This document shows positions 12,230 to 61,990 of a DNA stretch of 64,000 bases, in pieces. Every line of letters starts with the position of its first letter. Position 1 is the first letter of the stretch. Location of the stretch: NCBI RefSeq assembly GCF_004367585.1, contig NZ_CP038016.1, positions 1-64,000 of the forward strand, in the 5' to 3' direction. The notes beneath the pieces are model-generated. The model was not told the DNA's origin. It saw only the letters and a list, made by a program, of their open reading frames with translations, and did not search any database. This stretch comes from Paenisporosarcina antarctica. Lineage in GTDB: Bacteria; Bacillota; Bacilli; Bacillales_A; Planococcaceae. The translations under genes were made by a program, and so were the position numbers.

Positions 12230-12574
12230 TTGGCATACAAAAATTATTGCAATTACGTCTAGTTCTTAGACGTAAAATAACCTCTAGTTTTCGGTTAAAT
12301 ATATAACGACAATAGGGGATTGTCTTGAATAAATAATTTTTGAAGTAAATTCTTCTGCTAGAATCGGTTTGAAATTTTGTTATATCGCGTTTTAGAAAGA
12401 TGATATAAAAAATAAGATTGTGGAAAACAGTTTCTATTGGGCAAAGTTTGATAATATTGGAAGTGTATCTTTAAGACAAATGAAAATTCGCGCAATCCTT
12501 ATATGCCTTTTGTTGAATATATGTTTGGAACAAGACTCTTCAAGGAAAAGCCGAAGCTATGGAGGTATAAGAAG
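12230..12574. other. Intergenic region with a diverged repeat shared with 2705-2760
   Basis: ATTCTTCTGCTAGAATC, GGTTTGAAATTTTGTTAT and ATCGCGTTTTAG (about 12341-12395) match ATTCTTCTGTTGGATC, GGTTGAAAGTTTGTTAT and AACGCGTTTCGC at 2711-2755. Because it lies upstream of the resolvase remnant, it could be an old res site. No gene is seen here before 12575. Confidence 0.4.
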
Positions 12575-13336
12575 ATGAGTGGTTTATCTGAATCAGTTTA
12601 CGAAAAAATAATAAAAAGTAAAAAACGTGTTCAAAATCACGGGGAAGTTTTCACACCAAAAAGAATTGTTAAGCAAATGCTTGACTTGCCTAACATTCGC
12701 GAATCATGTCAGAATTTAACTTCTACTTTTCTAGAACCAGCTGCAGGAGAAGGCGCCTTCCTAGTTGAAGTTTTGAATAGAAAAATGAAGATGGTAGTTA
12801 AGAATTACGGTGATGATTTAATACGGTATGAGAACTATTCGCTACTTGCATTGTCAACGTTGTATGGTGTTGAATTGCTTGAAGATAACGCTCAAAAATG
12901 CGCTATGAATATGTATCAAGTCTATTATGAAGCGTATAGGCACCAAGCAATAGAACATGGTGCAAAAGTGAAAAACAAGGTTTTAGACAGTGCGAAATTG
13001 ATTATCTCTAACAATATTGCCCAGGGGAACTTTCTAACTAAATTATCTGCTAATGGAAATCCTATCGTGTTTAGTGAGTGGCAACTTGTAAACTTTCGTA
13101 AAGACGCTAAGACAATTAAGATTCAACGCACTGAATACACGATTGAGGATATTCTTGATGGCACAGAAAAAGAAAGAGGAGAGCCTTCAACTCATTCAGT
13201 AAAAGTAGAGCAACTGCAGCTGTTTGACTTTTTTGATGATGAAGAAATTGCTGAAACAGTAGAAAAACGAATGAAATACGTTCCTGTAAAGATTACTGAT
13301 GTCTATAAGGAAGAAATGGAGGTAGTCCATGGATAA
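12575..13336 (+). CDS. DNA N6-adenine methyltransferase-like subunit of R-M system
   Basis: I place the start at ATG 12575 (MSGLSESVYEKI), preceded by TATGGAGGTATAAGAAG; the longer frame from 12503 lacks a site. The 253-residue product has GEVFTPKRIVKQMLDLP and the SAM-binding motif I FLEPAAGEGAFLVEVL, followed by YGVELLEDNAQKCAMNM. These are typical of class-gamma N6-adenine methyltransferases. The catalytic (D/N)PPY motif is absent; the equivalent position reads IISNNIAQGNFL. It overlaps the next gene by 8 nt. It probably acts with the large protein, which has NPPY but a degenerate motif I. Confidence 0.75.
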   Translation: MSGLSESVYEKIIKSKKRVQNHGEVFTPKRIVKQMLDLPNIRESCQNLTSTFLEPAAGEGAFLVEVLNRKMKMVVKNYGDDLIRYENYSLLALSTLYGVELLEDNAQKCAMNMYQVYYEAYRHQAIEHGAKVKNKVLDSAKLIISNNIAQGNFLTKLSANGNPIVFSEWQLVNFRKDAKTIKIQRTEYTIEDILDGTEKERGEPSTHSVKVEQLQLFDFFDDEEIAETVEKRMKYVPVKITDVYKEEMEVVHG

Positions 13337-16300
13337 AACATTAATTAAGCCTTATGAAGAATTGGACTTGAAGATATATGCCTACGCCTTGCCTGAAGTT
13401 CCTTCTCATGAAGGTTACATCAAAATCGGTGATACGAATAGACTAGTCAAAAAACGTATTTTTGAACAGGTTGGAACGGCAGGACTTAACCCAAATATTC
13501 TTTTTGAAAAGATTGCAAAGAAGTCTGATGGCACATGGTTTCACGATAAGTCGCTTCACCGTTTTCTCCAACAGAATGGGGTTCAGAAAAAAGATTTTAA
13601 TGGTCATGCAGACGAATGGTTCTTTTTTAATGGAACACCCGAAAAGGCAGAAATTTTAACGGACAAGTATATCAATCGTGATTATGATGTAATTCAAATT
13701 GATGAAGCTCACTTAGATTACTCACTTCGGAATGAACAAAGTAATGCTGTTCAGCTAACGCTTGATTATTACAATAGTGGACAAGAACCAAAGGAATTTC
13801 TTTGGAATGCAAAACCTCGCTTTGGGAAAACACTGACTTCTTACGATTTTGTGAGAAAAATCAATGCAACAAATGTACTGATCGTAACCAACAGACCTGC
13901 TATAGCGAACTCATGGTTTGATGAATTTAAGAAGTTCATTTCTTGGCAAGAAACAGGAATGAAATTTGTTTCTGAAACGGATTCATTGAAAGATAAGGCA
14001 TTATCTCGTAAGGATTTCAATGATTTTCTTAACTCTACTGACCATGAGAATCCTTCGCAAATCACCTTCATTTCACTTCAAGATTTGAAAGGTGCGAAAT
14101 TTGCAGGTGGTGGCTATGAAAAACTTGAATGGGTTGGTCAACTGAATTGGGATTTACTAATCATCGATGAAGCGCATGAGGGTGTTGATACCGCAAAAAC
14201 GGACGTGGCGTTCGATAAAATCAAACGGAACTTCACTATACACTTGTCAGGTACTCCTTTCAAAGCATTGGCAAACAACAAATTTAATGAAGACCAAGTT
14301 TTCAATTGGTCGTATGTCGATGAACAAGTATCAAAAACGGATTGGGATTACACAACTGGAAGTAATCCATACGAAAATCTACCAACACTAAACTTATTCA
14401 CTTATCAAATGAGTAAGATGATTGAGGACCGAGTGTCTAAAGGTTTAACGTTAGACGATGATAGTAATGTTGAGTTTGCTTTCGACTTGAACGAGTTCTT
14501 CAGAGTTAAAGAAGACGGCAAGTTTGAATATGAAGCAAGCGTGAAAAAATTCCTTGATAACCTATCTTCAGGTAAGTTTCCTTTTGCGACAGATGAACAC
14601 CGGGGCGAATTAAACCATACTTTTTGGCTTTTACCTCGTGTTAACTCTGCGAAAGCACTTGAAAAGTTGTTGAAATCACACCCTGTTTTTGGTGAGTATA
14701 AGATTGTACTAGCGGCTGGTGACGGAATAAGCGTTGACAAGGATCCAGACCTTGAAGAAGAAGGACAAGACTATAGCAAGAATGAGAAGAGTTTCGATAA
14801 GGTTAAAAAGGTTATTAATGGAAATAAAAAAACCATAACTTTATCCGTCGGTCAACTTACAACAGGTATTACAATTCCGGAATGGTCAGCGGTGCTTATG
14901 CTTAACAACATTAAATCGCCTAGTTTATATTTCCAAGCCGCTTTTCGTGCCCAAAACCCTTATGAGTTTGTTCAGAACGGTAAGCTTTATAGGAAAGAAA
15001 ACGCCTATATCTTCGATTTTGCACCAGAACGAACACTATTGCTCTTTGACGAATTCGCTAATAACTTATCAAGTGGCAGCTCAAAAACGAGTGAGGAACG
15101 CAAGAAGAAGATTAAGAAGCTATTAAACTTCTTCCCAGTTATTGGGGAAGATGATGAAGGTAATATGCATGAGTTGGATGCAACTGAAGTCTTAACTATC
15201 CCAACACATATCACTTCAACAGAGGTAGTAAAACGTGGGTTCATGAGTAACCTTTTATTTGCGAATATTGCAGGTATTTTTGGTGGAAATTCACCATTCA
15301 AGGAAATCCTAGATAAGATTAAGCCTGAAAAGAATAAGCGTTTGACAGACCGTAGAGAAGTCAACGTAACAACCCCATTGATTGATAATGATGGAAACGT
15401 TGATGTTCCTACAGACATTGTTATTAACCATACGAAAGATATTTTCGGAGACGCTATCTATAAGGTTATGGAAAAACCTGATATTCCTGAAATACCAGAA
15501 GTTACAACTATTACTACTGAAATCAAAGACACGCTAGATAACGGGTTCAGCAAGTTGAAAGAAACATTTAACTTGAATAAAACTCAAACGGATAAAGCAA
15601 AAAATGAAGTAACTTCAGCAATTAAAGACTTAGTTGAGAAAAATGTAGAAACGTATCACAGTCAAGTTCAAGTAATCGAACATGATTTTACGAAACAAAT
15701 TCAAAACGCCCAAGAAGCTGATGACCAAGTTAAAGTAGAGCAACTAAAAACGGAATTTGAACGGAAAAAGGTTGAAGTTAATCAAACATTCACTGAAAAC
15801 CTTAATACAGAAGTAAGTGCAACGGTTGAAACTGCAGTCGAAAAACAAATTGTCAAAGTGGAAGAGAAGAAGAAAAAGACTACTGAAGATGATGTTAGGG
15901 ATCACTTGCGTGGATTTGCTAGAACTATTCCTGCATTCCTTATGGCTTATGGTGATGATGATACGACTTTGGCTAGTTTTGAAGAAAACATTGATGAACC
16001 AACCTTTGAAGAATTAACAAGTATTACCGTTGAAGAGTTCAAAAAACTGCGTGATGGTTTTGACTATGTAGACGAAGATGGGAATAACCGTAAAGTGAGT
16101 GGTTTATTCAATGAAGTGGTGTTTGACGCTAGTATCAAAGAGTTCTTTAATACGAAGATTAGATTATCAAACTATTTTGACGAAACGCTTACCGAAGACA
16201 TATTCGACTACATTCCGCCACAACAAACAAACCAAATTTTCACTCCGAGAAGAGTTGTGAAGTTGATGGTTGATTTAATTGCAGAAAATAATCCTGATAT

Positions 16301-17642
16301 TTTTAGTAACTACAATGTTAAGTTCATTGATTTATATACGAAAAGTGGACTTTATATCATTGAAATCGTGAAACGCTTGAATGAAGGGTTGAAAGAACAA
16401 ATTCCAAATTCTGAAGAACGAATTAAGTGGATTCTTGAAAATCAAGTTTATGCGTGTGCACCAAGTAACATCATTTACAACATTGCTAAAAATTATATTT
16501 TTGCTGATTTCAAAGACTTTTCGAGCAAAAACATTGTTGAATGTGATTTAAACGATTATGCAAAATTTGATTATGCGAAAGAGAAATTACTAGAAGTTTT
16601 TGGAGATGAGAATTTGAAATTTGATGTAATTATTGGTAATCCACCATATCAAGAAATGGATGGTGGAGCGCAAGCAAGTGCTAGCCCAATCTATCACCAT
16701 TTTGTACGTTTGGCAAAAAAACTTAATCCAGAATTAGTTTCATTCATTATGCCGACACGTTGGTATGCAGGTGGGAAAGGCCTTGATGATTTCCGAGATG
16801 AAATGATAAACGATATTCATCTTCGAGTGCTTCACGACTGGTTAACTCCTGAAGATATTTTCCCTAATACTAATATTCGTGGTGGAGTATGTTACTTCTT
16901 GTGGGATAATAACTATGATAATAGTAAAAAACTTACACGAGTTGTTACTCACGAAAATAATATGGTTACTGATGATGTTTTTAGAGCAATGAAAATTGAA
17001 GGCGTTGATATTTTTGTTCGTGATGGAAAAGCAATTACTATTCTAAAGAAAGTTTTAGTTAACGAAAATATAAATACAATGCTCAATAATGTTTCATCAC
17101 GTAAGCCGTTTGGTATGGAAGGGTATTTTATTAAAGATAGTAAGTTCCGAAAAACGAATTCAGGATTGTCTGATCCAATTCTTTGTTACGGAAAAGGACA
17201 AATAGTAGGTTTTGTTGAAAGAAATGAAATTACAGTTCGCCCTCAATGGATTGATATTTGGAAAGTATATACGCCAAGGGCGAATAATGTTGGTACTGAA
17301 TTAAATGATGATAATTTGAACACTTTTGTTGGTGCGCCAAAAACAATTTGTACAGAATCATATCTTGTGATTGGGGGAGAGTTAGGGTTAGATGAAGTTT
17401 CGTGTAATAACATCTCAAAGTACCTTTCTACAAAATTTGCTAGATATCTTCATGGTTTAGCAAAGGGTAGTCAAGATGCAACTTCTAAAACATTTAAATT
17501 TGTTCCTACACAGAATTTCTATGATAATTCAGATGTTGATTGGTCTGTTTCAGTTCAAGAAGTGGGTAAACAATTGTATGAAAAATATGGGTTATCAGAT
17601 GAAGAAATGAACCATATTGAAAGAAGAATTAAAGCAATGTAA
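13329..17642 (+). CDS. Large restriction protein: T5orf172-like nuclease, SF2 helicase, Eco57I-type methyltransferase
   Basis: This protein has 1437 residues. Residues 25-110 (EGYIKIGDTNRLVKKRI, DGTWFHDKSLHRFL, DEWFFF) resemble the T5orf172/GIY-YIG-like nuclease fold. Residues 130-650 form a type I/III-style helicase: AKPRFGKT (161-168, Walker A), DEAH (280-283), SGTPFKA (307-313), and an LSVGQLTTGITIPEW block with FRAQNPY for the motif V-VI area. A coiled region follows (about 720-860). The C-terminal third contains IFTPRRVVKLMVDL, FIDLYTKSGLYIIEI (about 999, motif I-like) and NPPY (about 1104-1107, catalytic). It should modify and cut DNA with ATP-driven translocation, together with the subunit encoded upstream. 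The specificity is unknown. Confidence 0.82.
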   Translation: MDKTLIKPYEELDLKIYAYALPEVPSHEGYIKIGDTNRLVKKRIFEQVGTAGLNPNILFEKIAKKSDGTWFHDKSLHRFLQQNGVQKKDFNGHADEWFFFNGTPEKAEILTDKYINRDYDVIQIDEAHLDYSLRNEQSNAVQLTLDYYNSGQEPKEFLWNAKPRFGKTLTSYDFVRKINATNVLIVTNRPAIANSWFDEFKKFISWQETGMKFVSETDSLKDKALSRKDFNDFLNSTDHENPSQITFISLQDLKGAKFAGGGYEKLEWVGQLNWDLLIIDEAHEGVDTAKTDVAFDKIKRNFTIHLSGTPFKALANNKFNEDQVFNWSYVDEQVSKTDWDYTTGSNPYENLPTLNLFTYQMSKMIEDRVSKGLTLDDDSNVEFAFDLNEFFRVKEDGKFEYEASVKKFLDNLSSGKFPFATDEHRGELNHTFWLLPRVNSAKALEKLLKSHPVFGEYKIVLAAGDGISVDKDPDLEEEGQDYSKNEKSFDKVKKVINGNKKTITLSVGQLTTGITIPEWSAVLMLNNIKSPSLYFQAAFRAQNPYEFVQNGKLYRKENAYIFDFAPERTLLLFDEFANNLSSGSSKTSEERKKKIKKLLNFFPVIGEDDEGNMHELDATEVLTIPTHITSTEVVKRGFMSNLLFANIAGIFGGNSPFKEILDKIKPEKNKRLTDRREVNVTTPLIDNDGNVDVPTDIVINHTKDIFGDAIYKVMEKPDIPEIPEVTTITTEIKDTLDNGFSKLKETFNLNKTQTDKAKNEVTSAIKDLVEKNVETYHSQVQVIEHDFTKQIQNAQEADDQVKVEQLKTEFERKKVEVNQTFTENLNTEVSATVETAVEKQIVKVEEKKKKTTEDDVRDHLRGFARTIPAFLMAYGDDDTTLASFEENIDEPTFEELTSITVEEFKKLRDGFDYVDEDGNNRKVSGLFNEVVFDASIKEFFNTKIRLSNYFDETLTEDIFDYIPPQQTNQIFTPRRVVKLMVDLIAENNPDIFSNYNVKFIDLYTKSGLYIIEIVKRLNEGLKEQIPNSEERIKWILENQVYACAPSNIIYNIAKNYIFADFKDFSSKNIVECDLNDYAKFDYAKEKLLEVFGDENLKFDVIIGNPPYQEMDGGAQASASPIYHHFVRLAKKLNPELVSFIMPTRWYAGGKGLDDFRDEMINDIHLRVLHDWLTPEDIFPNTNIRGGVCYFLWDNNYDNSKKLTRVVTHENNMVTDDVFRAMKIEGVDIFVRDGKAITILKKVLVNENINTMLNNVSSRKPFGMEGYFIKDSKFRKTNSGLSDPILCYGKGQIVGFVERNEITVRPQWIDIWKVYTPRANNVGTELNDDNLNTFVGAPKTICTESYLVIGGELGLDEVSCNNISKYLSTKFARYLHGLAKGSQDATSKTFKFVPTQNFYDNSDVDWSVSVQEVGKQLYEKYGLSDEEMNHIERRIKAM

Positions 17643-17659
17643 TTTGCAATATGATGTAG

Positions 17660-17690
17660 AAGCACGTCAATTATGGCGTGCTTTTTTCTG
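17660..17690 (+). terminator. Terminator of the R-M operon
   Basis: AAGCACG/CGTGCTT stem followed by TTTTT. The rest of 17690-18044 is AT-rich with no gene seen. Confidence 0.6.
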
Positions 17691-18044
17691 TCTGCTTTTG
17701 TACTACAAATGAAAAAATGTTGAATTCATTATCATCCACATCGGAATTAAATTTCCTATTAAAATAGAAGTATGAAGAACAATATTACTTAAATCAAAGA
17801 TGTACGAGTGCTTGGACAAAAGAAGAGGTATTATTAAATCACCAAATTAGAAAGAAGATTATGACTGGTCGGCTTTAGATTAAACTTGCCCTTTAATTTA
17901 TTATTTGAATATTTTTTATTATTAAACAATTATATTCCAATTTAACCCACACTAATATAATATGTAGCTATATGTATCGAAGACAGTTTAATAAACATTG
18001 AAAAATTTTATTTTTTATGTTTTCCACAAAAAATATTTTGCAAA

Positions 18045-18275
18045 ATGATTCACAAGGTCATGGGTTTTGGGAGTGGAACAATATCAATAGGAGGAAATGT
18101 ATTTATTTATAATATTTCTACGAAAAAATTAAGTCAGTTAACACATTACGACGCAAAGATACAAATAACGAAATTGAAAATGAATGAAATTAAAAAGATA
18201 CATCTTAACGGAATAAAATATACTGATGATAATTATTCGTATTTTGAAGAGTTCTCAGATGAGATATCTCTGTAA
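18045..18275 (+). CDS. Possible small hypothetical protein
   Basis: This is a 76-residue ORF without a clear ribosome binding site. The middle (YNISTKKLSQLTHYDAKIQITKL split over 18110-18180) has a beta-propeller-like look, so it may be the tail of a decayed larger gene. Weak evidence. Confidence 0.25.
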   Translation: MIHKVMGFGSGTISIGGNVFIYNISTKKLSQLTHYDAKIQITKLKMNEIKKIHLNGIKYTDDNYSYFEEFSDEISL

Positions 18276-18483
18276 AAGATAAAATCAGAGAATGATTGGT
18301 AAGGCTACTTTACACTTCTCGGTAATTTGACTTTCATGACTTATGGTGGACTATTTTGGATCAATGTTTTTTGAAAAAGTTAATTAATTGATCTAAATGG
18401 TCTTTTGAAAGTTTAGTTTAAATCTAATTAGCGATAACCATCTTTATCACTAATTAGAAAGTGACATTTTAATAAATAAAAAA

Positions 18484-18527
18484 GACGACTCTAAATTCAA
18501 AATGTGAATTTAGAGCCGTTTTTTTAT
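18484..18527 (+). terminator. Strong hairpin terminator
   Basis: ACTCTAAATTCA and TGAATTTAGAG pair with a short loop, followed by CCGTTTTTTT. It isolates the following defence genes from upstream transcription. Confidence 0.7.
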
Positions 18528-18676
18528 ATCTAAATAAGGTTATTCTCATCTTGTTGTGATATTAACATATTAAAGATGAATTTTTCTTCAGTCTGTCCGT
18601 TGTAACAATGTGTTGTATAAATATTAGATTCTATTTAAAATGGAGGAAATAGTAAATTTAGGAAAGTTGGAATTCT

Positions 18677-21600
18677 GTGAAAATTGCACTAATACACATT
18701 AGCGATATACATTATCGTTCTAATAAAAACTATCTTGATGAAAAAATCCAAAAGCTTTCGGCTGCTATTAATTCGACACTCTACGGAATTGAAAAAACAT
18801 TTATTACTGTTTCCGGTGACATCGCATTTTCAGGGAAAAATGAAGAATTTGAACATGGTTTTGATTTAATTAGTGGAATTCTCGAATCCATTGGGAATCA
18901 ATTTAAGCAAGCGCCAGAAGTTATTATGATTGCCGGAAATCATGACTGCGACTTTAACACAGTTAAAAAATCGCGTGGAGTACTTATTAAGAATGAAGAT
19001 TTATTGACTGATGACGAATTAATCAGTGAGGTTTGTTTACCTTTAACTAATTATTTTGATTTTGAATCTTTATTTAATAGAAAAGAAGGCATGGAAACGC
19101 AAGACAACCTTTTTAAACAACATAAATTTGAGATTCATGGCAAGACTATTTTATTTAATTGCTTAAACACCGCATGGATCTCCCAGCTATACGAATCCCC
19201 AGGAGATATGCTATTTCCCATAAACCGGTACAAATCATACTTAGAGAATAAGTCAGACGTGTCTATTACCTTATTACATCATCCAACACACTGGCTAGAA
19301 CCAAATAACAAACGGCAAGTAGATAAAATTCTTCGGAGAAACAGTGACATAATCCTTTCAGGACATGAACACACTCAAACGAATACAATGATAACAGATT
19401 ATTCAGAAGGGCAAACTTTATATTTTGAGGGAAGTGCTCTTCAAACCGATATTCCAAATGAAAGTAGCTTTTCAATTATTAAAATTGATTTAGAAAGAGA
19501 CACTTTAACTAAAGAGGAATTTGCTTGGAACGGTAATATATATATAAAACAGGAAACTATGACGGATGTAGATATACCAAAAAGCGCTCCTTCTTTAGGC
19601 GAATTCCGTATCAAAGAAGAGTATTTAAATTACATAAATGATTTAGGAATTCCTTTAAAACACCCAACGTTAACATCAAATGTTAAATTAGATGATTTAT
19701 ATGTTTTCCCGGATGTGAAAATAATTAACTTTGAAGAAAAAAAAGGAATTGAAGATAAGATAAATATAAGCCTTAAAGAAATTTTAAATTGGCACAAGCA
19801 CAAGAAAGTATTATTGATAGGGAATGAGAATTTTGGAAAAACATCCTTCTGTAAGATTGCATATAACCATTTAATCAATAATGCTTATATACCAGTAAAG
19901 ATCGATGGTAAATCACTTAATGATGCGAAGCTCGAATCAATTATTAAATTGGTAAATCGTCATTTTCTTCATCAATATGATAAAGAAACAAGTGATGAAT
20001 TTGAGCAATTAGACAAAAATAAAGTTGTATTAATTATTGATGACTTTGATAATGCTCCGACAAATGCAAAGTTTCGAAATAATTTGATAAAAACACTCGA
20101 TGAATTATACCCAAATATATTGATTACAGGAAATGAAATTGTAAAATTCCACAAATTCCTTAGTAATGAGGATACAACGGGTTTTAATAATTATACTCGC
20201 TTAGAATTATTGCCTTTCGGACACAAGCTTCGAGGAGAGATGATAGAAAAGTGGAATAGAGCTGGAAGTCATTATACGTTGGATGAGGATATTTTAGTTA
20301 GAAATATTGATAAATGCGAAAAAGTTGTTTCAACTATAATTGGAAACAGTTTCGTTCCATCGTTACCATTCTTTATACTTATGATTTTACAAACCAGGGA
20401 ATCTGAGCAGTCCAATATATCAGAAAGTGCTTATGGCTATTATTATGAGTATTTAATAAGCCAATCTTTTATTAATATAAAACTTAAAAATGAAGATATT
20501 GATGCTTTTAATAATTATCTTTCGCATTTGGCATATCATTTTTTCTCCTTGAAAATTAATGAGATAAACAGACGAGACTTATTATCTTTTCACGAAAAAT
20601 ATTGTAGAACTTATGCCATTGCAATTGATTTTGGAGAATATGAAAGAAATTTAGATGGTGCAGGAATTCTAACGATCGTAGGAAATATACTTTCGTTTAA
20701 GTATAAGTATGTTTTTTACTATTTTGTTGCTAAATACTTCTCATTAAATATGGATAAACCAGAAGTATTGGAAAACGTAAAAGTTATGTGTAACAAATTA
20801 TACATTGAAGAATATTCAAATATAGTCATGTTTTTATCTCATCTATCCAAACATCCATTAATTCTAAACAGTGTATATGAGAGTGCCAGAACTATTTTGG
20901 AAGAATTTGAACCTTCCAGATTAGAAGAGGAAATAGCACCTTTTAATCAAATGATTGCTGAGATGCCAGATCTTGTATTTGACGAAAGTAAAGACAACTT
21001 ACAACACCGTAAAGAACGGGATATTGCTAAAGATGAGATTGAAAAAGCGAGACAAGAAATAGCATCAGACAGTCAAGAGTCCATGAGAGAAGATGGGAAT
21101 TTTGAAAGCTTCGATATTATATCGAAAATGAATTGGTCAACAAAAACTATAGAAATAATGGGACAGATTATGAGGAATTATTATGGCTCTACACCCGGGG
21201 ATCAGAAACTACTATTGGGGGAAGAGGCATATTTACTCAGCATGCGCTCCCTAAGTACATTTTTAACTACATTTGAGCAAAACAAAGAGCATCTTATTAG
21301 TGAAGTGGAAAGAATTATTTTCGAAAAAAATGTAGCAGGAACTGATAAAGCAGACTCACTTGCAAGAAATTTTGTTTTCAATCTCATGGCAGCAATATCT
21401 AATTTTTTCATAAGCAAAGTCACTAGTTCATTAGGATCAGTGAATCTATCAGAAACTTTTTCAATGATTTTAGAAAAAAATGATACAACTGCAATACGTC
21501 TAATCGACTTATCAATTAAATTTGAACATGGAAAACATATACCTTTCAAAGAAATTGAAGAGTTTATTGATACTTTATCTGCAACTTCTAATATTTTAGC

Positions 21601-21748
21601 AAGGCAAATTTTAGTGAATATAGCTGTTAATCATCTTTACATGTTCCCGGTCCATTTTTCTGATAGACAGCGTATTACAGAACTATTGTCCTTAAATAAA
21701 AAAACTCAACATAAAATCACTCATACTCAAAAAGATAAAAAACAATAA
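18677..21748 (+). CDS. Metallophosphoesterase-STAND NTPase fusion (probable defence protein)
   Basis: This is a 1023-residue protein. Residues 1-290 are a calcineurin-like phosphoesterase with all metal ligands: Asp10 and His12 (HISDIHY), Asp48 (SGDIAFSG), Asn88-His89-Asp90 (AGNHD), His201-His202 (LLHHPTHW) and His230/His232 (SGHEHTQ). Residues about 375-560 are a P-loop NTPase: GNENFGKTS (382-390) and the acidic VVLIIDDFD (450-458), resembling STAND/NACHT-type ATPases. The rest is long, helical and without recognised repeats, likely a sensor. A nuclease or phosphodiesterase effector fused to a STAND switch is a common anti-phage layout. The start is GTG 18677 with GGAAAGTTGG upstream. It heads a plus-strand cluster with the HEPN gene. 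Confidence 0.78.
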   Translation: MKIALIHISDIHYRSNKNYLDEKIQKLSAAINSTLYGIEKTFITVSGDIAFSGKNEEFEHGFDLISGILESIGNQFKQAPEVIMIAGNHDCDFNTVKKSRGVLIKNEDLLTDDELISEVCLPLTNYFDFESLFNRKEGMETQDNLFKQHKFEIHGKTILFNCLNTAWISQLYESPGDMLFPINRYKSYLENKSDVSITLLHHPTHWLEPNNKRQVDKILRRNSDIILSGHEHTQTNTMITDYSEGQTLYFEGSALQTDIPNESSFSIIKIDLERDTLTKEEFAWNGNIYIKQETMTDVDIPKSAPSLGEFRIKEEYLNYINDLGIPLKHPTLTSNVKLDDLYVFPDVKIINFEEKKGIEDKINISLKEILNWHKHKKVLLIGNENFGKTSFCKIAYNHLINNAYIPVKIDGKSLNDAKLESIIKLVNRHFLHQYDKETSDEFEQLDKNKVVLIIDDFDNAPTNAKFRNNLIKTLDELYPNILITGNEIVKFHKFLSNEDTTGFNNYTRLELLPFGHKLRGEMIEKWNRAGSHYTLDEDILVRNIDKCEKVVSTIIGNSFVPSLPFFILMILQTRESEQSNISESAYGYYYEYLISQSFINIKLKNEDIDAFNNYLSHLAYHFFSLKINEINRRDLLSFHEKYCRTYAIAIDFGEYERNLDGAGILTIVGNILSFKYKYVFYYFVAKYFSLNMDKPEVLENVKVMCNKLYIEEYSNIVMFLSHLSKHPLILNSVYESARTILEEFEPSRLEEEIAPFNQMIAEMPDLVFDESKDNLQHRKERDIAKDEIEKARQEIASDSQESMREDGNFESFDIISKMNWSTKTIEIMGQIMRNYYGSTPGDQKLLLGEEAYLLSMRSLSTFLTTFEQNKEHLISEVERIIFEKNVAGTDKADSLARNFVFNLMAAISNFFISKVTSSLGSVNLSETFSMILEKNDTTAIRLIDLSIKFEHGKHIPFKEIEEFIDTLSATSNILARQILVNIAVNHLYMFPVHFSDRQRITELLSLNKKTQHKITHTQKDKKQ

Positions 21749-21883
21749 CCCAGAAAAGTATATAAACAGGTTGATTTTAAAAGGGTTCTAATAGAGCTTC
21801 CGATTGATTTTTTAACTTGTAAATAAAATTTGCTAGTGCTCCATAATCAGACAATACGAGTTTTCATAAGAGGTGGTGCATTA

Positions 21884-23173
21884 ATGAAAATCCAATTTGA
21901 AGATTGGTCAACACAACAAGATTTTAGTTCCCGTACATCCGATTTGTTTAAAGAATCCATACTATGTTATCGATCACGGGCATATAAAGGGGCTTTGCTT
22001 TTTTCCTTTCTTTCCTTTCAAAATATCATAATGGAGAGAATTTTAAATGCAAAAATTCCTCCTACTGCATTGACATACGAAAAGAAATGGATCGAAATAA
22101 ATTCGAAGTTACGCGATGAGGATAAATCTGATGGACAAGTAATAGAATCAATAATTATGCAAAAACCTTTTGATATTTTCAATTTGTCTGAGGATACACG
22201 TAATCAGTATATTTATTGGAAAAACCGTAGAAATGACTGTGCTCACGGTAAAGAAAACAAAATCGATTATAGTCATATAGAAAGTTTTTGGTTATTTATT
22301 GAATCAAATTTAGAAAAATTCAACGTTAATGGTGGAGTTTCTCATCTAATTGAAAAGGTAAAGAATCATTTTGATATAACAAGAACTCCTAGCGATAAAA
22401 ATCCATCCTATTTAATAAAAATAATACCAGAAGTAATGATACCTTTGGAACTAAAGGATTTCTTAGAGACTACGTATGAAAATGTAATTAGTAAAAAAAC
22501 ATTCCATTATGACGATGCCAACGTTTTAACATTTTATAAAGAACTTTTAAATTTAAAGCAAGAATTTCTGCCCTATGTATTAAATTATTTTAAAGAAAAT
22601 AAAAGTTTGTTGATAAATTTATTAGCTATAGAGACTTCTTTAATTTATCAGTTTAAAACTGATCCAGTATTTATTCGAATGGTATGGAAGACGGAATTAA
22701 AAAATAGTTTTTCTCATTACAGAATAGTTGTTTCGCTTCTACGTTATAAATTAATTCCAAAGGATCAATTTGAAGAATTCGTTATTGCGATTACAGAAAA
22801 TAATAGTGACACATTTTTTGTTGATATATCAGCTGAAAACCAAGTAGAATTTAATGTTTTAAAAGAAAGCATTTTTTTGAAAACGGTTGGGGACATAGCT
22901 TTTCACTCGGATTTCCCTAAAATTAATTCATTTGATTGGGCAAGGGAAAATAAAAATTTGCTTTGTCATTATTTACGCATTTACAATTTTAATGAGGACG
23001 TTGTTAGAGCTCTTTATAGTACTTTTTCAAAACCAAATTACCCTTGGCAATTTGGTAAAACCTTAGTAGAATTATTTGAACAAGAGCCTGAACTATTTGA
23101 ATATTATACTATGATAGCTGATTTACATAGTATTGAAATACCATCATATTTTCAAAAACGATTAGGTATATAG
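21884..23173 (+). CDS. HEPN-domain protein, probable RNase effector
   Basis: The start chosen is ATG 21884 because AAGAGGTGGTGCATTA precedes it; a reading from 21830 has none. The protein is 429 residues. The N-terminal 150 residues are helical and contain WKNRRNDCAHGKENKIDYSH. R116-N-D-C-A-H121 matches the HEPN RX4-6H active motif of metal-independent RNases in toxin-antitoxin, Abi and CRISPR proteins. The C-terminal 250 residues are helical and unfamiliar. It follows the phosphoesterase-STAND gene by 135 bp on the same strand and may act with it. RNase activity is inferred from the motif only. Confidence 0.65.
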   Translation: MKIQFEDWSTQQDFSSRTSDLFKESILCYRSRAYKGALLFSFLSFQNIIMERILNAKIPPTALTYEKKWIEINSKLRDEDKSDGQVIESIIMQKPFDIFNLSEDTRNQYIYWKNRRNDCAHGKENKIDYSHIESFWLFIESNLEKFNVNGGVSHLIEKVKNHFDITRTPSDKNPSYLIKIIPEVMIPLELKDFLETTYENVISKKTFHYDDANVLTFYKELLNLKQEFLPYVLNYFKENKSLLINLLAIETSLIYQFKTDPVFIRMVWKTELKNSFSHYRIVVSLLRYKLIPKDQFEEFVIAITENNSDTFFVDISAENQVEFNVLKESIFLKTVGDIAFHSDFPKINSFDWARENKNLLCHYLRIYNFNEDVVRALYSTFSKPNYPWQFGKTLVELFEQEPELFEYYTMIADLHSIEIPSYFQKRLGI

Positions 23174-23221
23174 AAATTATTTATTCTAATTCCTTCATAA
23201 CTTTTTATAGGAGATGAATTT

Positions 23222-24016
23222 ATGGATAAGAAGAGTGAACTAATATTTATTGCGAAAAATTCGGGAGAGTATCTTCAAGTCACTGGGAAAACTCTTGATA
23301 AAAGATTAGAAAGCATTAATTTAGATGAAAAACATGAAGAAGAAATTATGAAAGAACACAGTTTTAAAGTGATTAGAGATAAAGGATTATCTTTATTTGG
23401 AGCTGTGGGAGATGTAATTTCTACTGTCCTTACTTGGAATGAAGAAGTAAATCAAAATATTACTGAAGCAAAGCAATTGATCTTACTTGAACAATACTTT
23501 AATAAAGTTGATGAACAAGCGAAAGGCGTTAAAATGCTTAGTGAACTTTTAAAAAACCCTCAAGGGAATACCCTGTTTAACAAAATACTAAGAATCATAG
23601 ATGATTCACCGCCAGATCCTGAATTAACGGAACATCTGTCGACTGTGCTAAAGAAAATAATAGAAGAAGGGAATTTTGAGGAATTATTTGAAAGACATAG
23701 ATATGCTTTAGGACAAATAGAAAGATTAACACCTCAAGCAATAACTATTATTGCAGACTATCAAAACTGGCCATCAATTCAATTAGGTACGTCTATATCT
23801 TTCGGACCTAAAATTAAGTCTGATTTCTATACAGAATTTACACAAGCATACAGCCAGTTAAAACACATTACAGATATTAATAAATTAAAAAGAATTCAAC
23901 ATTCTGTTGTTGAAATACAAAACATAGGATTGATGGAAGCTTATAATGCTGCGGATGGAAAAACACTGTGTCAATTAACTGATGTTGGAAGAGATCTTTT
24001 AGTATATATTGAATAG
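23222..24016 (+). CDS. Unknown helical protein in the defence cluster
   Basis: This 264-residue protein has a good ATAGGAGATGAATTT site. It is mostly helical and charged. A glycine-containing hydrophobic stretch lies at about residues 54-72 (DKGLSLFGAVGDVISTVLTW) and could insert into a membrane. The C-terminal part ends in LTPQAITIIADYQNWPS and TDVGRDLLVYIE, which resembles a winged-helix edge. No family is recognised. It lies 48 bp after the HEPN gene and 213 bp before the Pycsar pair, so it more likely belongs with the HEPN/STAND genes. Confidence 0.55.
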   Translation: MDKKSELIFIAKNSGEYLQVTGKTLDKRLESINLDEKHEEEIMKEHSFKVIRDKGLSLFGAVGDVISTVLTWNEEVNQNITEAKQLILLEQYFNKVDEQAKGVKMLSELLKNPQGNTLFNKILRIIDDSPPDPELTEHLSTVLKKIIEEGNFEELFERHRYALGQIERLTPQAITIIADYQNWPSIQLGTSISFGPKIKSDFYTEFTQAYSQLKHITDINKLKRIQHSVVEIQNIGLMEAYNAADGKTLCQLTDVGRDLLVYIE

Positions 24017-24229
24017 TAGTGCGTCTTGGACGATACTGTGTCATAAAAAGCAAGAAAGCTTTTCAATAGCTTAATTAGCTATGCGACGGTTTATTGTTGT
24101 GCCAATTCACGTAATTAAAAAAGTTCAAGTCCTAGTGCTGCTAACTAAAGTGCTGGATAAAATATTCATTTGAATTATATGAACTTTATTATATTATTAA
24201 CTAGTAATACTGGATAAATAAAGGAGATT

Positions 24230-24961
24230 ATGAAATTTATGACTGAATTAAGAAAAGGAAACGTCCCTATTCATAAATTAATAAAAGATGGAAAAATTCT
24301 AGAAAGTTTAATTTACAGCGATTTGAAGAAAAGTTTTTCAATTACTGATATACCCACTGAAAAAATCGGTACTTATGAAGATTTCCCGGCAGCAACAGTT
24401 GTTTTTGATTTATCAGGTTCTTCTCTTAGTATTAGAAATAGAGGAGCAAAAAAGTTTGCTGCAGAATCACAATACTTATTTAAAGGCATTACAGATATTA
24501 TTTATACTCACGACGGAATTATTGAAAAATTTCCTGGAGATGGAATAAGTATGCATTTCCCAGCTAAGAATTCCGAGAAGGATGACAGTGTTAATGCTGA
24601 AAGAGCTATCAAAAATGCATGTAAATCAATAATGATGATTGATTTGTTTCTAAGTACAAAAATGAATATGGATAGAAGTAAATATAGATTTTCTCTTTCA
24701 TATGGTGAAGATACGATAATTACAATTTTTGGTAGCTTGAAACATCAAGAGCTTATTTCTATAGGACATGCTGTAAATGTTGCTCATAAACTCGAGAAAA
24801 TTATTAAAAATGCAAATTGTTTTGTTGGGATGGATGAAATTTGTAAAGAAATTGCTGAAAGTAAATACGACTTTTCGTTTTCCGTATGCAAAACTCTGCC
24901 TATAGATCTCAAAAGAAATGAACATGGTAATCCTGAATTTTGGTATGGAGTGGTATATTAA
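24230..24961 (+). CDS. pycC: Pycsar nucleotide cyclase
   Basis: This 243-residue protein has the class III adenylate/guanylate cyclase core. VVFDLSGSS (residues 57-65) carries metal-binding Asp60, and FPGDGISMHFP (101-111) carries the second metal Asp104. SIGHAVNVAHKLEK resembles the dimer-interface helix of this fold. Pycsar cyclases make cCMP or cUMP on phage infection and switch on a linked effector. The downstream gene encodes exactly such an effector, a DUF5706 membrane protein, which makes the call firm. AAGGAG is only 3 bp from ATG 24230; a second in-frame ATG at 24239 is an alternative start. Confidence 0.87.
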   Translation: MKFMTELRKGNVPIHKLIKDGKILESLIYSDLKKSFSITDIPTEKIGTYEDFPAATVVFDLSGSSLSIRNRGAKKFAAESQYLFKGITDIIYTHDGIIEKFPGDGISMHFPAKNSEKDDSVNAERAIKNACKSIMMIDLFLSTKMNMDRSKYRFSLSYGEDTIITIFGSLKHQELISIGHAVNVAHKLEKIIKNANCFVGMDEICKEIAESKYDFSFSVCKTLPIDLKRNEHGNPEFWYGVVY

Positions 24962-24962
24962 T

Positions 24963-25463
24963 TTGAACCCAATAAGAGAAAATACGGAGCGTTTGTTCGA
25001 CTATCATAAACATAATTTAGTTTATATTGGGGATTATATTAAGTTTGCTGATGGGAAAGCTGGTGTAGCCTTAGGAGCTACTTTAGTTATGTTAGGATTC
25101 TTCGGAAAAGCAGCCAAGGAACAGGGGTTTAATAATCTGTCATTCAATCAGTTCGGATTATTATTAGGCTTAATTCCATTAGTTCTAGCTTGTTATTTTT
25201 TCATTTGGAGAGTTCTTTGGCCAAGATACACTACGGATTCCAATTTATATATGTCATGGGGAGGAATTGGATCATTCACGAGTAGTGATATATATGTAAA
25301 TTTTCTTGGAAGAGTTGTAGATGAAGATTTTTTGCGTGCTATGGGACGTCAAAATTATAGTCTAGCTCAAGTCTGTGTTAAAAAGTATAAGTATTTGAAA
25401 TTTGGATTTACCTGGTTAACAATAGGGATGATATTTGAGGGTGTATTTTGGTTTGTTGGTTAA
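24963..25463 (+). CDS. pycTM: Pycsar transmembrane effector (DUF5706)
   Basis: I choose TTG 24963 as start: GGAGTGG at the end of the cyclase gene is spaced 9 bp ahead, giving NPIRENTERLFDYHKHNL. Upstream ATG codons at 24918 and 24945 lack a site. The 166-residue protein has the DUF5706 signature YIGDYIKFADGKAGVALGA, two membrane helices near residues 35-52 and 67-88, and a hydrophobic C-terminal segment (FTWLTIGMIFEGVFWF). PycTM effectors are thought to damage the inner membrane once they bind the cyclase product. It starts 1 bp after the cyclase stop. Confidence 0.85.
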   Translation: MNPIRENTERLFDYHKHNLVYIGDYIKFADGKAGVALGATLVMLGFFGKAAKEQGFNNLSFNQFGLLLGLIPLVLACYFFIWRVLWPRYTTDSNLYMSWGGIGSFTSSDIYVNFLGRVVDEDFLRAMGRQNYSLAQVCVKKYKYLKFGFTWLTIGMIFEGVFWFVG

Positions 25464-25545
25464 TACGTACCAACTATAAATCACAGCGTATAATACAAAA
25501 TTCGTTAAATTTCCTTCACTTAAAATTACTTATTTACAGAACTTT

Positions 25546-25600
25546 AAACTATCTCGTAATTAATACTGGAGAAATTCAGGCTTTAATTATGAGATAGTTT
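25546..25600. terminator. Bidirectional terminator between Pycsar and resolvase
   Basis: AAACTATCTCGTAATTAA pairs with TTAATTATGAGATAGTTT over 18 bp. It serves the converging Pycsar and resolvase genes. Confidence 0.65.
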
Positions 25601-25651
25601 CTTCTATATATACAGGTGAAATTATAGAAACTATAGTGTTTCTTAATCAGA

Positions 25652-26206
25652 TCACTTACGTTCCAAGTAGCGGTAAATAGTTGTTCGAGAGACTCCCCAT
25701 CTGTTTGCCACATCTTTTATAGGTGTGCCTCCATCAATAAGAGCTTTCATCATTTCAATATCTTTCACTCCGCATTTCTCTGGACGCCCACCAAGTCGCC
25801 CCCGTGCTTTAGCTGCCACTCTTCCTGCAGCAGAACGTTCTTGAGTAAGATTTCGTTCAAACTCAGCAAATGCCGCAAAGAGATGAAACATCAGTTGTCC
25901 GGTAGCGTTGCCACGATCCATAGTGAGATTCTCTTGAAGACTGTGAAAACCAATGCTTTGGTTATTCAGATTGTTGACTATGTCAATCAAGTCTTGCATG
26001 TTTCGACCCAGACGATCTAATCGCCATACGACGATGGTATCTCCTTGACGAGCATATTTCAGCGCTTCTGCTAATCCAGGTCGCTGTTTTTTTGATCCAC
26101 TCATCTTATCGTGAAAAATTTTCACACATCCATATTGAGTAAGCGCATCTGTTTGCAAATCCAAGTTTTGTAAACCAGTTGAAACACGAGCATATCCAAT
26201 TAACAC
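25652..26206 (-). CDS. Serine recombinase (resolvase/invertase family)
   Basis: This 184-residue protein is of full family length. It has MLIGYARVSTGLQNLDLQ with catalytic Ser9, DKMSGSKKQRPGLAEAL, VVWRLDRLGRNMQDLI (the conserved R-LDRLGR motif) and FAEFERNLTQERSAAG, and a C-terminal Hin-like HTH (ALIDGGTPIKDVANRWGVSRTTIYRYL). Such enzymes resolve transposon cointegrates or plasmid multimers. No transposase accompanies it. A broken close copy lies at 11976-12229, so two related elements bracket the 12-26 kb defence block. Confidence 0.92.
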   Translation of the reverse strand: MLIGYARVSTGLQNLDLQTDALTQYGCVKIFHDKMSGSKKQRPGLAEALKYARQGDTIVVWRLDRLGRNMQDLIDIVNNLNNQSIGFHSLQENLTMDRGNATGQLMFHLFAAFAEFERNLTQERSAAGRVAAKARGRLGGRPEKCGVKDIEMMKALIDGGTPIKDVANRWGVSRTTIYRYLERK

Positions 26207-26497: not shown

Positions 26498-27547
26498 TTG
26501 AAAAAGTATTTAGTAGTTTTATTTGCTTTATTTTTAATCTTTAGTTTAGTTGCTTGTTCATCTGAAAGTTCGAAAACCTTAAAAGCAGAGGATCAGAATG
26601 AGGAAAAGAGTTCTGAGGACAAAGCAAAGGCAGAAGTAGAAGCCAAAGCAAAGGCAGAAGTAGAAGCCAAAGCGAAGGCAGAAGTAGAAGCCAAAGCGAA
26701 GGCAGAAGTAGAAGCCAAAGCGAAGGTAGAAGCAGAAGCTAAAGCGAAGGCAGAAGCAGAAGCCAAAGCAAAGGCAGAAGCCAAAGCAAAGGAAGAGTCA
26801 GAAGCTAAAGCAAAGGCAGAAGCACTGTTCTCAGGATACAAACTTATTGAAGTTGATGGTGGCGATTTGTCTGGATATCGTGAAACTAACGTCGTCGTTG
26901 ACATTGGTTACGGGGACCGTGAATATTGGGCATTTACTAATGAATATGGTCAACTAGTACGTGTCATTGCTGACGAAATCATTATACAAGATGACAGTAA
27001 CGAACCTGTCTTATCGTCTGGCAGATACTATTCTGATGAGGCAAAGGTTCCTGGCGTCGAAAGTGACGTTTTGGATGAAGGGCATATAGTTGCTGATTCT
27101 AACGGAGGGGTATCGAATGCTTATAATATTACCCCACAAAATAGTACGCTCAACCGACATGGCGATCAAGCTTATATGGAAAACGTGATCCGTAGCGCAG
27201 GTGGAGCCACTAATTTTGAAGCAATTATCACATATCCGAATACGGAAACGCAGATCCCTTCTAGTTATCAGTATACCTATACATTAATGGGTAACGAGAT
27301 CGTTGATACATTTGACAATGTGAACCCTGATGAAGTAAATACATCTCTCGGTTTAACAGAAAGTGAGCCTTCTGATTCAACTAGTTCAAACACAAACGGT
27401 GATATTTCTAGTGTTGATACAAACGGTAATGGCAAGGTGACGATTAAAGAAGCAAAAGACGCAGGTTTTAGTATGCCGATAACGAGTGACCATTGGTTAT
27501 ACGCATATATGCAAGATAATGATGGGGACGGTATGGTAGGTGAGTAA
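26498..27547 (+). CDS. Nuclease-like lipoprotein with repetitive stalk and EF-hand-like tail
   Basis: The start is TTG 26498, with ATGTGGGGGTT ahead; this places a lipoprotein signal first (KKYLVVLFALFLIFSLVAC). Residues about 45-110 are a repetitive KAEVEAKA stalk encoded by 24-bp tandem repeats. The body (about 115-260) has DEGHIVADSNGG and YNITPQNSTLNRHG, matching the beta-beta-alpha-Me (DRGH-N) core of DNA/RNA non-specific endonucleases, with His as general base. The tail has DTNGNGKVTIKE (EF-hand loop) and DNDGDGMVGE, which resembles the Excalibur calcium motif but lacks its cysteine. It is likely a surface-tethered nuclease; cleavage is inferred. Confidence 0.72.
   Translation: MKKYLVVLFALFLIFSLVACSSESSKTLKAEDQNEEKSSEDKAKAEVEAKAKAEVEAKAKAEVEAKAKAEVEAKAKVEAEAKAKAEAEAKAKAEAKAKEESEAKAKAEALFSGYKLIEVDGGDLSGYRETNVVVDIGYGDREYWAFTNEYGQLVRVIADEIIIQDDSNEPVLSSGRYYSDEAKVPGVESDVLDEGHIVADSNGGVSNAYNITPQNSTLNRHGDQAYMENVIRSAGGATNFEAIITYPNTETQIPSSYQYTYTLMGNEIVDTFDNVNPDEVNTSLGLTESEPSDSTSSNTNGDISSVDTNGNGKVTIKEAKDAGFSMPITSDHWLYAYMQDNDGDGMVGE
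26625..26825 (+). repeat. 24-bp tandem coding repeats
   Basis: About eight units of GCAGAAGTAGAAGCCAAAGC-type sequence encode the Ala/Lys/Glu helical stalk. Copy number should vary among strains by slippage. Confidence 0.85.
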
Positions 27548-30726: not shown

Positions 30727-31578
30727 TTGAATGATTCTTCAATAGAATTTGTGCATCTAAAACAACATCCAAAAGCTTGTCCTCTATTCAGTATTTGGCT
30801 GGAATCTAATGATAAATTTAGAAAAAATAGTGGTTCTTATAAAATTCATAGAACTTTAACTGTTAAAGAAGGAGTTAATAATCCGATTCCTGATTTAGCG
30901 GATATGATAAAAGAACACCATATTTTGCCCGAAAGGCTAGACTATTTAAAGAAGAAAAAATCGATTCTTAACAAATACGACTTTAGTGAGTTTGTTAAGA
31001 GTCAAAATTTACTTCCAACGGAACAAAAAACTCAAAGAGGGAATTTAGGAGAAATAATCCTGGGTGAATACTTAGAGCGAGTAACAGATAATGAAGTATT
31101 TATAAATAGACTTCGGTATAATCCTAACGTTGAACAGTCTATGAAGGGAGACGATATCTTACTATTAAATAAAGATAATCCTTTCTTAAAAGTTTATACT
31201 GGTGAATCTAAGTTTCGCACTACTCCATCTCAGAGTGCTGTAGAAGAATTAACCAAGGAATATGGAAAACAAATTACTCGGCCTCTATCGATAGGTTTCA
31301 CGACTAATTTACTGTATACAATGGGAAGATTTGAAGAGGCTGAGATGCTTGAGGAATTATCTTTTAAAATTGCTAAAGATGAAATCGACATTGTTAATAT
31401 TGGTCTATTAATAAGCAATCATAATGCTGCAAAACATATTGAGAGTCATCTGGTATCAAGTAATCCGAATTTCGCTGTAATTTCGATGAATATTAGAAAT
31501 CCAGATGCTTTTGCTGATCTCTGCTTTCAAACTGCTTTTCGATTGTTAGAAGGAGATGAAGATGAAGATGAAGAATAA
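30727..31578 (+). CDS. hamA: HamA, Hachiman nuclease-like subunit (DUF1837)
   Basis: TTG 30727 lies 8 bp after GGAAGGAGAG. The 283-residue protein shows a PD-(D/E)XK-type core: RGNLGEIILGEYL (Glu109), MKGDDILLL (Asp142/143) and TGESKFR (Glu160, Lys162). This pattern and the position beside a DExH helicase identify DUF1837/HamA of the Hachiman anti-phage system. HamA is held inactive on HamB and is released as a nuclease when HamB meets damaged or unusual DNA. The gene overlaps hamB. Confidence 0.85.
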   Translation: MNDSSIEFVHLKQHPKACPLFSIWLESNDKFRKNSGSYKIHRTLTVKEGVNNPIPDLADMIKEHHILPERLDYLKKKKSILNKYDFSEFVKSQNLLPTEQKTQRGNLGEIILGEYLERVTDNEVFINRLRYNPNVEQSMKGDDILLLNKDNPFLKVYTGESKFRTTPSQSAVEELTKEYGKQITRPLSIGFTTNLLYTMGRFEEAEMLEELSFKIAKDEIDIVNIGLLISNHNAAKHIESHLVSSNPNFAVISMNIRNPDAFADLCFQTAFRLLEGDEDEDEE

Positions 31579-43090: not shown

Positions 43091-43128
43091 CACTCCATTT
43101 AATAGAATTATATTTTAATAAAGCATGT

Positions 43129-54846: not shown

Positions 54847-55192
54847 GTAAAAAACATAATAAGAAAACTGATTAGTTCATAAATTTAGTAAACCTTTCAT
54901 TAGTTCATTTCTGTATGTAGTTCCTCTTTTTGACTCGTTCCCTCGTCAAGAAAAGGACAGGAACTTATGGCATGTAGGCAAAGCCCTACAGTCCGTGGTT
55001 ATCGCCCTTTTTAGAGGGAAGCGACACGTTAGAGCTACTTGCTAAGCGTATTTTTCTTAGTTACCAGCACTCGTGCAGTCGCCAGTCAAAAATATTTATA
55101 TTTTGTCGAATTTCGTGAAGGATTTTAGTGAAAAAGAGCGAATATTGTAATAGGTTTAAATAACCATAAAATTAGGTGAAAGAAGGTTATGT
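54847..55192. other. Intergenic region with possible structured leader
   Basis: Between the uvrX remnant and the gene at 55193 lies GC-richer sequence (about 54930-55090) with short complementary stretches such as AAAGCCCTACAG and GCCCTTTTTAGAGGGAAGC. It resembles a leader RNA, but I cannot assign a family. Confidence 0.3.
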
Positions 55193-55507
55193 ATGCAAAG
55201 GTTAACGACGGTCGAGTTAGCGAAAAAAAGAATTATAGAACTCCAAGATTTTGTGTTTTTAGTGGAAAACTATGAAGTGATCACATTAGAGCAAAAAATC
55301 TTAAAGGAATATGCTTATTTCGGAAGCATGGTCAAAGTCGTTGAAAAAATTAACAAAGAATTTGGTCCTGATACAATTGATAAACCATTTATTTCTACCC
55401 TTTTACAAGCGAGACCTCAAGATGAATTACATAAGGTCTTAAAAACAAATTACTTATTTAAAACACGTCACGCAAGGAAGAAGAAAAGTGACCACCGACA
55501 CTACTGA
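55193..55507 (+). CDS. Small helical protein downstream of the uvrX remnant
   Basis: The 104-residue protein follows GTGAAAGAAGGTTAT. It is helical and charged (TVELAKKRIIELQDFVFLVE, LEQKILKEYAYFG), with a strongly basic end (FKTRHARKKKSDHRHY) fitting nucleic-acid contact. No family is recognised. A second small gene follows in the same orientation. Confidence 0.55.
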   Translation: MQRLTTVELAKKRIIELQDFVFLVENYEVITLEQKILKEYAYFGSMVKVVEKINKEFGPDTIDKPFISTLLQARPQDELHKVLKTNYLFKTRHARKKKSDHRHY

Positions 55508-55563
55508 ACTTACATAATCTTTTAGATTATTTCGAATGCTAAAATGATAAGGGAGGAAAACAA

Positions 55564-55905: not shown

Positions 55906-55956
55906 CATAGACAATTTTCACTTGCCTATTCCTGTGTGCGCACTTAGATAAGGCAA

Positions 55957-61981: not shown

Positions 61982-61990
61982 TGAAACGCA

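What the first reader, a model, noticed from the sequence alone, without database searches (positions are those of the whole stretch)
18677..24016. Possible undescribed defence operon: phosphoesterase-STAND, HEPN protein and an unknown helical protein
Three plus-strand genes follow each other with gaps of 135 and 48 bp. The first fuses a complete calcineurin-like phosphoesterase (all metal ligands present) to a P-loop NTPase and a long helical sensor. The second has a HEPN RX4H motif (R116-H121). The third has a hydrophobic segment but no known domain. From established knowledge, STAND NTPases and HEPN RNases are typical abortive-infection parts. I do not know a named system with this combination; that they act together is inference.
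Basis: partly seen in the sequence, partly recalled or inferred. Interest (0 to 1): 0.8.

Follow-up and report, generated by a model that had tools for sequence, protein, structure and literature searches.

The report
Neighbouring defence genes, not one operon
Three bacterial genes that look like a new three-part virus-defence system are most likely separate genes parked side by side on a defence-rich plasmid: one is a recently validated single-gene defence (DS-8), and the other two belong to uncharacterised families that some phages or prophages carry.

Summary
The three genes are present as described, with gaps of 135 and 48 bp, and the named residues check out. The 'undescribed three-gene operon' reading is not supported. 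Gene 1 (metallophosphoesterase-STAND) scores 1101 bits against NCBIfam DS8_antiphage, cut-off 790; DS-8 is a validated single-protein system (PMC13092281, section 7). Gene 2 is a probable HEPN ribonuclease with a C-terminal helical region: R116, A120, H121 and K123 are invariant in 49 aligned sequences. It matches no named family. Gene 3 belongs to phrog_15873, a phage family of unknown function. The genes were not found together elsewhere: 0 of 58 gene-2 loci hold gene 1 or 3, 0 of 25 gene-3 viral loci hold gene 1 or 2, and 0 of 10 loci with DS-8-type relatives hold gene 2 or 3. The contig is 75 kb with a ParA-like ORF, so plasmid-like, and also carries a probable Pycsar pair, Hachiman and a type IIG restriction enzyme. 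The interesting remainders are gene 2's family, and the DS-8 sensor half occurring fused to TIR instead of phosphoesterase, which suggests that the phosphoesterase is a swappable effector.

The parts
18677..21748 (+). DS-8 anti-phage protein: N-terminal metallophosphoesterase, STAND/NACHT-type P-loop NTPase (K388), C-terminal helical region
   Evidence: NCBIfam NF053861 1101.1 bits against cut-off 790; PADLOC PDC-S60 E 1e-124; Pfam Metallophos 5-233 and nSTAND_NTPase4 629-684; motifs
21884..23173 (+). probable HEPN ribonuclease (about residues 1-150) with C-terminal helical region (about 187-427); no named family
   Evidence: R116, A120, H121, K123 invariant in 49 aligned sequences; all-helical model, mean pLDDT 91.9; weak matches of single relatives to several HEPN models; sole PDB sequence match of the N-terminal profile 'Dandelion-hepn', E 0.12, not reaching the RX4H
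23222..24016 (+). phrog_15873 family protein of unknown function; helical with a winged-helix-like C-terminus in the model
   Evidence: PHROG match E 1.8e-42; model mean pLDDT 82.4, pTM 0.72; phage and prophage relatives
24230..24961 (+). neighbour, not part of the set: probable Pycsar cyclase PycC
   Evidence: PADLOC PycC E 1.6e-13; no Pfam cyclase match
24918..25463 (+). neighbour, not part of the set: Pycsar membrane effector PycTM
   Evidence: Pfam PycTM 30.2 bits against cut-off 27.2; PADLOC PycTM E 4.7e-25
18489..18515 (+). intrinsic-terminator-like hairpin upstream of DS-8
   Evidence: pattern scan; consensus match only, 5 such sites found in 17600-25700 against a mean of 2.5 in shuffles

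Best explanation
The three genes are separate defence or phage-cargo modules that accumulated next to each other on a plasmid-like defence island; they are not one three-component system. Gene 1 is DS-8. Its helical C-terminal part probably senses infection, the STAND ATPase probably oligomerises, and this switches on the N-terminal metallophosphoesterase, which destroys a phosphoester metabolite or signal and stops phage growth. Gene 2 probably acts alone as an abortive-infection RNase: a HEPN domain using R116 and H121, held in check by and coupled to its own helical C-terminal region. Gene 3 is probably a phage-derived protein that helps a prophage exclude competitors. Shown here: the genes, the family matches, the conserved residues and the absence of co-travel in the loci examined. 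Shown by others: that DS-8 defends and needs both domains. Inferred: oligomerisation and sensing, the RNase activity and self-restraint of gene 2, and any defence role for gene 3.
For: DS-8 assignment far above the curated cut-off; the paper's section 7 describes DS-8 as a single-protein system whose metallophosphatase and NACHT mutants lose defence. tblastn at E 1e-3: 0 of 58 gene-2 loci hold gene 1 or gene 3, and 0 of 25 gene-3 viral loci hold gene 1 or gene 2. Both flanks reach 3 kb or more in 46 of 58 and 21 of 25; the loci form 56 and 7 clusters at 90% identity. None of 10 loci with full, partial or weaker DS-8 relatives holds gene 2 or gene 3. Genome level: 0 of 31 gene-2- or gene-3-positive genomes have DS-8 over the cut-off. 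No neighbour family recurs in more than 7 of 58 gene-2 loci; the three commonest are, by my reading of their sequences, tyrosine recombinases (7), ArpU-like regulators (5) and serine recombinases (5). Gene-3 relatives lie between a transcription regulator and HNH/terminase genes in three annotated records.
Against: The three genes lie in one direction with short gaps and no + strand terminator-like site between them, so they may share a transcript, and a partnership unique to this plasmid is not excluded. One of 10 genomes with a DS-8-type protein also has gene 2, though there the DS-8 relative is weak (173 bits) and on another contig. The empty gene-3 result in those 10 genomes had no positive control in that call. 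Against gene 2 as phage cargo: no relative in 50,697 phage records; its viral relatives are the 8 IMG/VR loci.
Confidence: 0.86

Rival explanations
1. A genuine three-gene defence operon, newly assembled on this plasmid, in which DS-8 senses and the HEPN protein and gene 3 act as extra effectors or regulators.
For: Same strand, gaps of 135 and 48 bp, no + strand terminator-like site between them; similar low GC of 0.28-0.31.
Against: No second instance in the loci examined; DS-8 works alone; the neighbouring PycC has the same low GC, 0.30, so composition does not single out these three.
Confidence: 0.07
2. DS-8 with gene 2 or gene 3 as an accessory that tunes or restrains it.
For: Adjacency only.
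Against: No adjacent pair in the 10 DS-8-type loci or the gene-2 loci examined; no partner family recurs beside gene 2 in more than 7 of 58 loci.
Confidence: 0.05
3. Gene 2 and gene 3 are phage or host genes with no defence role.
For: Neither matches the defence library; gene 3's PHROG has no functional annotation; among 49 members of gene 2's alignment only isolated weak matches to defence families.
Against: Gene 2's family keeps a HEPN-like signature across distant bacteria, and some members lie beside phage genes or Abi-type genes; both genes sit here between DS-8 and a Pycsar pair.
Confidence: 0.2

Closest known systems
DS-8 (DefensePredictor system 8; NCBIfam NF053861; PADLOC PDC-S60)
   Same: Match over residues 7-1005, same domain order, conserved catalytic motifs
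   Different: The paper's DS-8 was tested against E. coli phages (I did not see its source strain); this one is from a Bacilli genome and untested
TIR-STAND proteins of Vibrio, Streptococcus and Lactococcus plasmids
   Same: Residues 311-1001 of gene 1, the NTPase and C-terminal part, match five of them at 24-28% identity
   Different: Annotated N-terminal TIR domain in place of the phosphoesterase
HEPN abortive-infection proteins (AbiV, AbiJ, RiboL-PSP-HEPN and others)
   Same: All-helical domain with an invariant R-X4-H; single relatives of gene 2 match such models weakly
   Different: Gene 2 itself matches none of them; has a C-terminal helical region; no recurrent partner
phrog_15873
   Same: Gene 3 matches over residues 1-240, E 1.8e-42
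   Different: Function of the family unknown; here on a plasmid-like contig among defence genes

Membership tests
DS-8 | Score above the curated equivalog cut-off | tested here: met
   1101.1 bits against 790
DS-8 | N-terminal metallophosphoesterase with metal-ligand motifs | tested here: met
   Pfam Metallophos E 4.4e-11; D10, H12, D48, GNHD, HH, GHEH also in 5 of 5 other homologues over the cut-off
DS-8 | NACHT/STAND P-loop NTPase | tested here: met
   nSTAND_NTPase4 E 6.1e-15 (NACHT itself only E 0.015, below cut-off); P-loop K388 conserved
DS-8 | Single-gene system | tested here: met
   No gene-2 or gene-3 relative beside 10 DS-8-type loci; described as a single-protein system. Other possible partners were not tested
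DS-8 | Protects against phage | not testable with these tools
   Shown for the paper's DS-8 protein, not for this one
HEPN ribonuclease (gene 2) | Conserved R-X4-6-H | tested here: met
   R116 and H121 invariant in 49 of 49 and 14 of 14 aligned sequences; 10 of 58 loci with short, open, long or fragmentary ORFs were left out of the 49
HEPN ribonuclease (gene 2) | Recognised by a HEPN profile | tested here: inconclusive
   No HEPN hit for the window protein; single or paired relatives hit RiboL-PSP-HEPN (4.5e-4), MAE_28990, DZIP3, AbiV and AbiJ-type models weakly, NCBIfam AbiV 5.1e-5 in 1 of 49
HEPN ribonuclease (gene 2) | HEPN fold | tested here: inconclusive
   Confident all-helical model, but Foldseek of the whole chain gave no match at E 0.001; the 50 listed are largely large helical assemblies, best E 0.024
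Abi_alpha / DUF4393 (gene 3) | Profile similarity | tested here: not met
   hhalign probability 0.5% against a shallow four-sequence Abi_alpha profile
New three-gene system | Conserved gene neighbourhood | tested here: not met
   0 of 58 and 0 of 25 loci; 0 of 10 DS-8-type loci

The most novel reading that the evidence does not exclude
Gene 2 founds an undescribed family of stand-alone, sometimes prophage-borne HEPN RNases with their own helical sensor, spread from Bacillota to Bacteroidota and beyond; and the DS-8 phosphoesterase is an effector module interchangeable with TIR on the same STAND sensor, so it acts by depleting a metabolite and not by clearing an immune signal.
Probability: 0.4. 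Interest if true: 0.55.

Novelty: new member of a known kind. Interest (0 to 1): 0.3.

Why it matters
It removes a false lead, a three-gene operon, while placing DS-8 in a plasmid-like island of a Bacilli genome. It points to two testable items. One is what the DS-8 phosphoesterase degrades, given that the same sensor half elsewhere carries a TIR domain. The other is an unnamed family with a HEPN signature that turns up in genomes of distant bacteria and in some prophages.

Tried and rejected
Rejected: a three-gene operon. Gene 3 as a membrane protein. Gene 3 as an Abi_alpha relative: profile comparison negative, but with a shallow four-sequence profile. Gene 2 as a PD-T7-5 relative: one of 49 members gave E 9.4e-4 (which one was not identified), and a search of 11 genomes, the own one and ten with gene-2 loci, gave only two short weak matches. 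Fold searches gave no match at E 0.001 or below for gene 3 (PDB best 0.27, many of the 50 listed being winged-helix regulators; viral library best 0.23) or gene 2 (PDB best 0.024). No PDB sequence match to gene 1 at E 0.1 by phmmer. Attempts to fetch AbiJ and AbiV members for comparison gave 0 of 200 and 1 of 200 genomes, too few to use. Rfam found nothing at gathering scores in 12000-36000 or 55000-64000. A single-sequence viral scan for gene 3 found no relative; the alignment-based scan did. No phage record in the INPHARED set matches gene 2. Paper searches: PDC-S60 gave 0 papers; Dandelion with HEPN gave 5, none looking related from title and abstract start; searches were seen as listings only, apart from the papers named in the report.

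Full report
Observation. The three + strand genes exist at 18677-21748, 21884-23173 (an upstream TTG at 21830 is also open) and 23222-24016. Ribosome-binding-like sequences precede genes 2 and 3, and the gaps are 135 and 48 bp. No + strand terminator-like site lies between the genes, and one lies at 18489-18515 before gene 1; these are consensus matches only.

Gene 1. It scores 1101 bits against NCBIfam NF053861, DS8_antiphage (cut-off 790), matches PADLOC PDC-S60 (E 1e-124), and carries Pfam Metallophos and nSTAND_NTPase4. I read section 7 of PMC13092281 and passages of the rest: DS-8 is a single-protein system, and mutations in the metallophosphatase or the NACHT domain abolish defence; its substrate is unknown. 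In the family of the window's host, 108 of 261 genomes have some match at E 0.001, most of the listed ones short and around the P-loop, and 6 of 261, own included, have one over the cut-off. The five others were aligned (51-53% identity for two, 28-31% for three) and keep the catalytic motifs.

An effector swap. Searching plasmids with gene 1 gave 24 records: 1 covering 88% of the query, 5 matching only from residue 311 onwards and annotated as TIR proteins (3 Vibrio, 1 Streptococcus, 1 Lactococcus), and 18 matching only N-terminal parts, at most 47% of the query. Two of the five TIR records were opened and show a TIR-annotated gene spanning the match. Calcineurin-type phosphoesterases as variable effectors in related conflict systems appear in passages that I saw of PMC7159879 and PMC8195603. 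I infer that the phosphoesterase is an effector and not a signal remover; the DS-8 paper speaks of a cyclic nucleotide still to be identified, one passage of PMC7159879 lists such enzymes as cyclic-nucleotide cleaving, and nothing here measures this.

Gene 2. It has no match at E 1 in Pfam, PADLOC or NCBIfam and none below E 0.4 in PHROGs. A scan of genome contigs gave 50 loci, whose titles include Bacillota, Bacteroidota, a Planctomycetota MAG, an Anaerolineales MAG and others (phylum names partly recalled); a viral scan gave 8. None was found in 50,697 phage records, and 21 plasmid records matched, 2 over at least 80% of the query. In 49 aligned sequences (the window plus 48 of the 58 loci; 10 with short, open, long or fragmentary ORFs left out) R116, A120, H121 and K123 are invariant. 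In an earlier set of 14 R116, N117, H121 and K123 are invariant but A120 is not: the Enterococcus relative has Val. The model is confident (mean pLDDT 91.9) and all-helical. The HEPN assignment rests on the motif plus scattered weak profile matches of single relatives; fold search did not confirm it. Gene 2 occurs in 4 of 151 relatives and 8 of 398 genomes of the class, own included.

Gene 3. It belongs to phrog_15873 (E 1.8e-42). It occurs in 1 of 151 relatives, own only, and in 3 of 398 class genomes, own included, one of them a weak partial match. Relatives lie in Lactobacillales phages and phage-like plasmids, between a transcription regulator and HNH or terminase genes in three opened records, in a fourth phage whose genes are all hypothetical, and in a genome of the class between what I read as tail and lysis genes (unannotated). 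The model (mean pLDDT 82.4 for the best of five, 61.0 for the lowest) has a winged-helix-like end, with only weak structural matches.

Do they travel together? tblastn of the three proteins and the two Pycsar proteins over the fetched loci found gene 1 or gene 3 in 0 of 58 gene-2 loci and gene 1 or gene 2 in 0 of 25 gene-3 loci; no Pycsar relative either (E 1e-3). Flanks of at least 3 kb on both sides are held for 46 of 58 and 21 of 25; at 90% identity the loci are 56 and 7 clusters, so the gene-3 sample is effectively small. In wider regions around 10 DS-8-type loci (5 over the cut-off, one of these at a contig end; 5 partial or weaker, one on a contig of only 5 kb), none had gene 2 or gene 3. 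Genome-wide, gene 2 occurs in 1 of 10 genomes with a DS-8-type protein, gene 3 in 0 of 10 (no positive control). DS-8 over the cut-off occurs in 0 of 31 genomes with gene 2 or gene 3 (10 from the genome searches, 21 of the 50 loci); two of the 31 have relatives of about 170 bits elsewhere. One of those two has the same place coordinates as the positive genome, so it is the same genome.

Context. The contig is 75,413 bases and has a ParA-like ORF, by my reading, near its end, so it is plasmid-like. Around the three genes are a type IIG restriction enzyme, a probable Pycsar pair and Hachiman. The most frequent neighbour families within 5 kb of gene 2 are, by my reading, recombinases and ArpU-like regulators, none in more than 7 of 58 loci. 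Among 96 flanking ORFs of 49 loci, Pfam finds phage XkdF protease in 4, integrase in 4, Mu F in 3, and single Abi-type and other genes.

Verdict. Three independent modules in a defence island, gene 1 already known. The host's family is inferred from one same-family genome whose contig matches in length and position a Metasolibacillus meyeri record.

Noticed in passing
24230-25463: Probable Pycsar pair (PycC and PycTM) directly after gene 3; the cyclase has no Pfam cyclase match and is seen only by PADLOC models.
   Followed up: partly
30727-34804: Hachiman-like HamA/HamB pair.
   Followed up: no
12503-17642: Methyltransferase plus a 1437-aa type IIG-like restriction-modification fusion with a weak T5orf172 match at its N-terminus.
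   Followed up: no
39222-45816 (minus strand): GmrSD_N protein, a second protein whose N-terminus matches HEC-06, Orf5 and SspE models, and a UvrD helicase matching GajB-type models with topoisomerase zinc ribbons; may be a further defence cluster.
   Followed up: partly
3050-4093: Fic-domain protein matching PADLOC SoFic, E 1e-36.
   Followed up: no
18045-18275: 76-aa ORF matching only the C-terminal half of PADLOC PDC-M58B and of DUF4652; may be a gene remnant.
   Followed up: no
26620-26822: Tandem array of a 24-base unit inside an ORF, encoding an Ala/Lys/Glu/Val-rich repeat after what looks like a lipoprotein signal.
   Followed up: no
60000-64000: G+C rises to 0.42-0.47 with no listed ORF above 146 aa; a 114-base unit repeats 2.8 times at 62002-62318; no Rfam match in 55000-64000.
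   Followed up: partly
L090 (Sporosarcina sp. E16_8) and G275: A genome with a gene-2 relative and, on another contig, a weaker metallophosphoesterase-STAND relative of about 1118 aa and 173 bits, below the DS-8 cut-off.
   Followed up: partly
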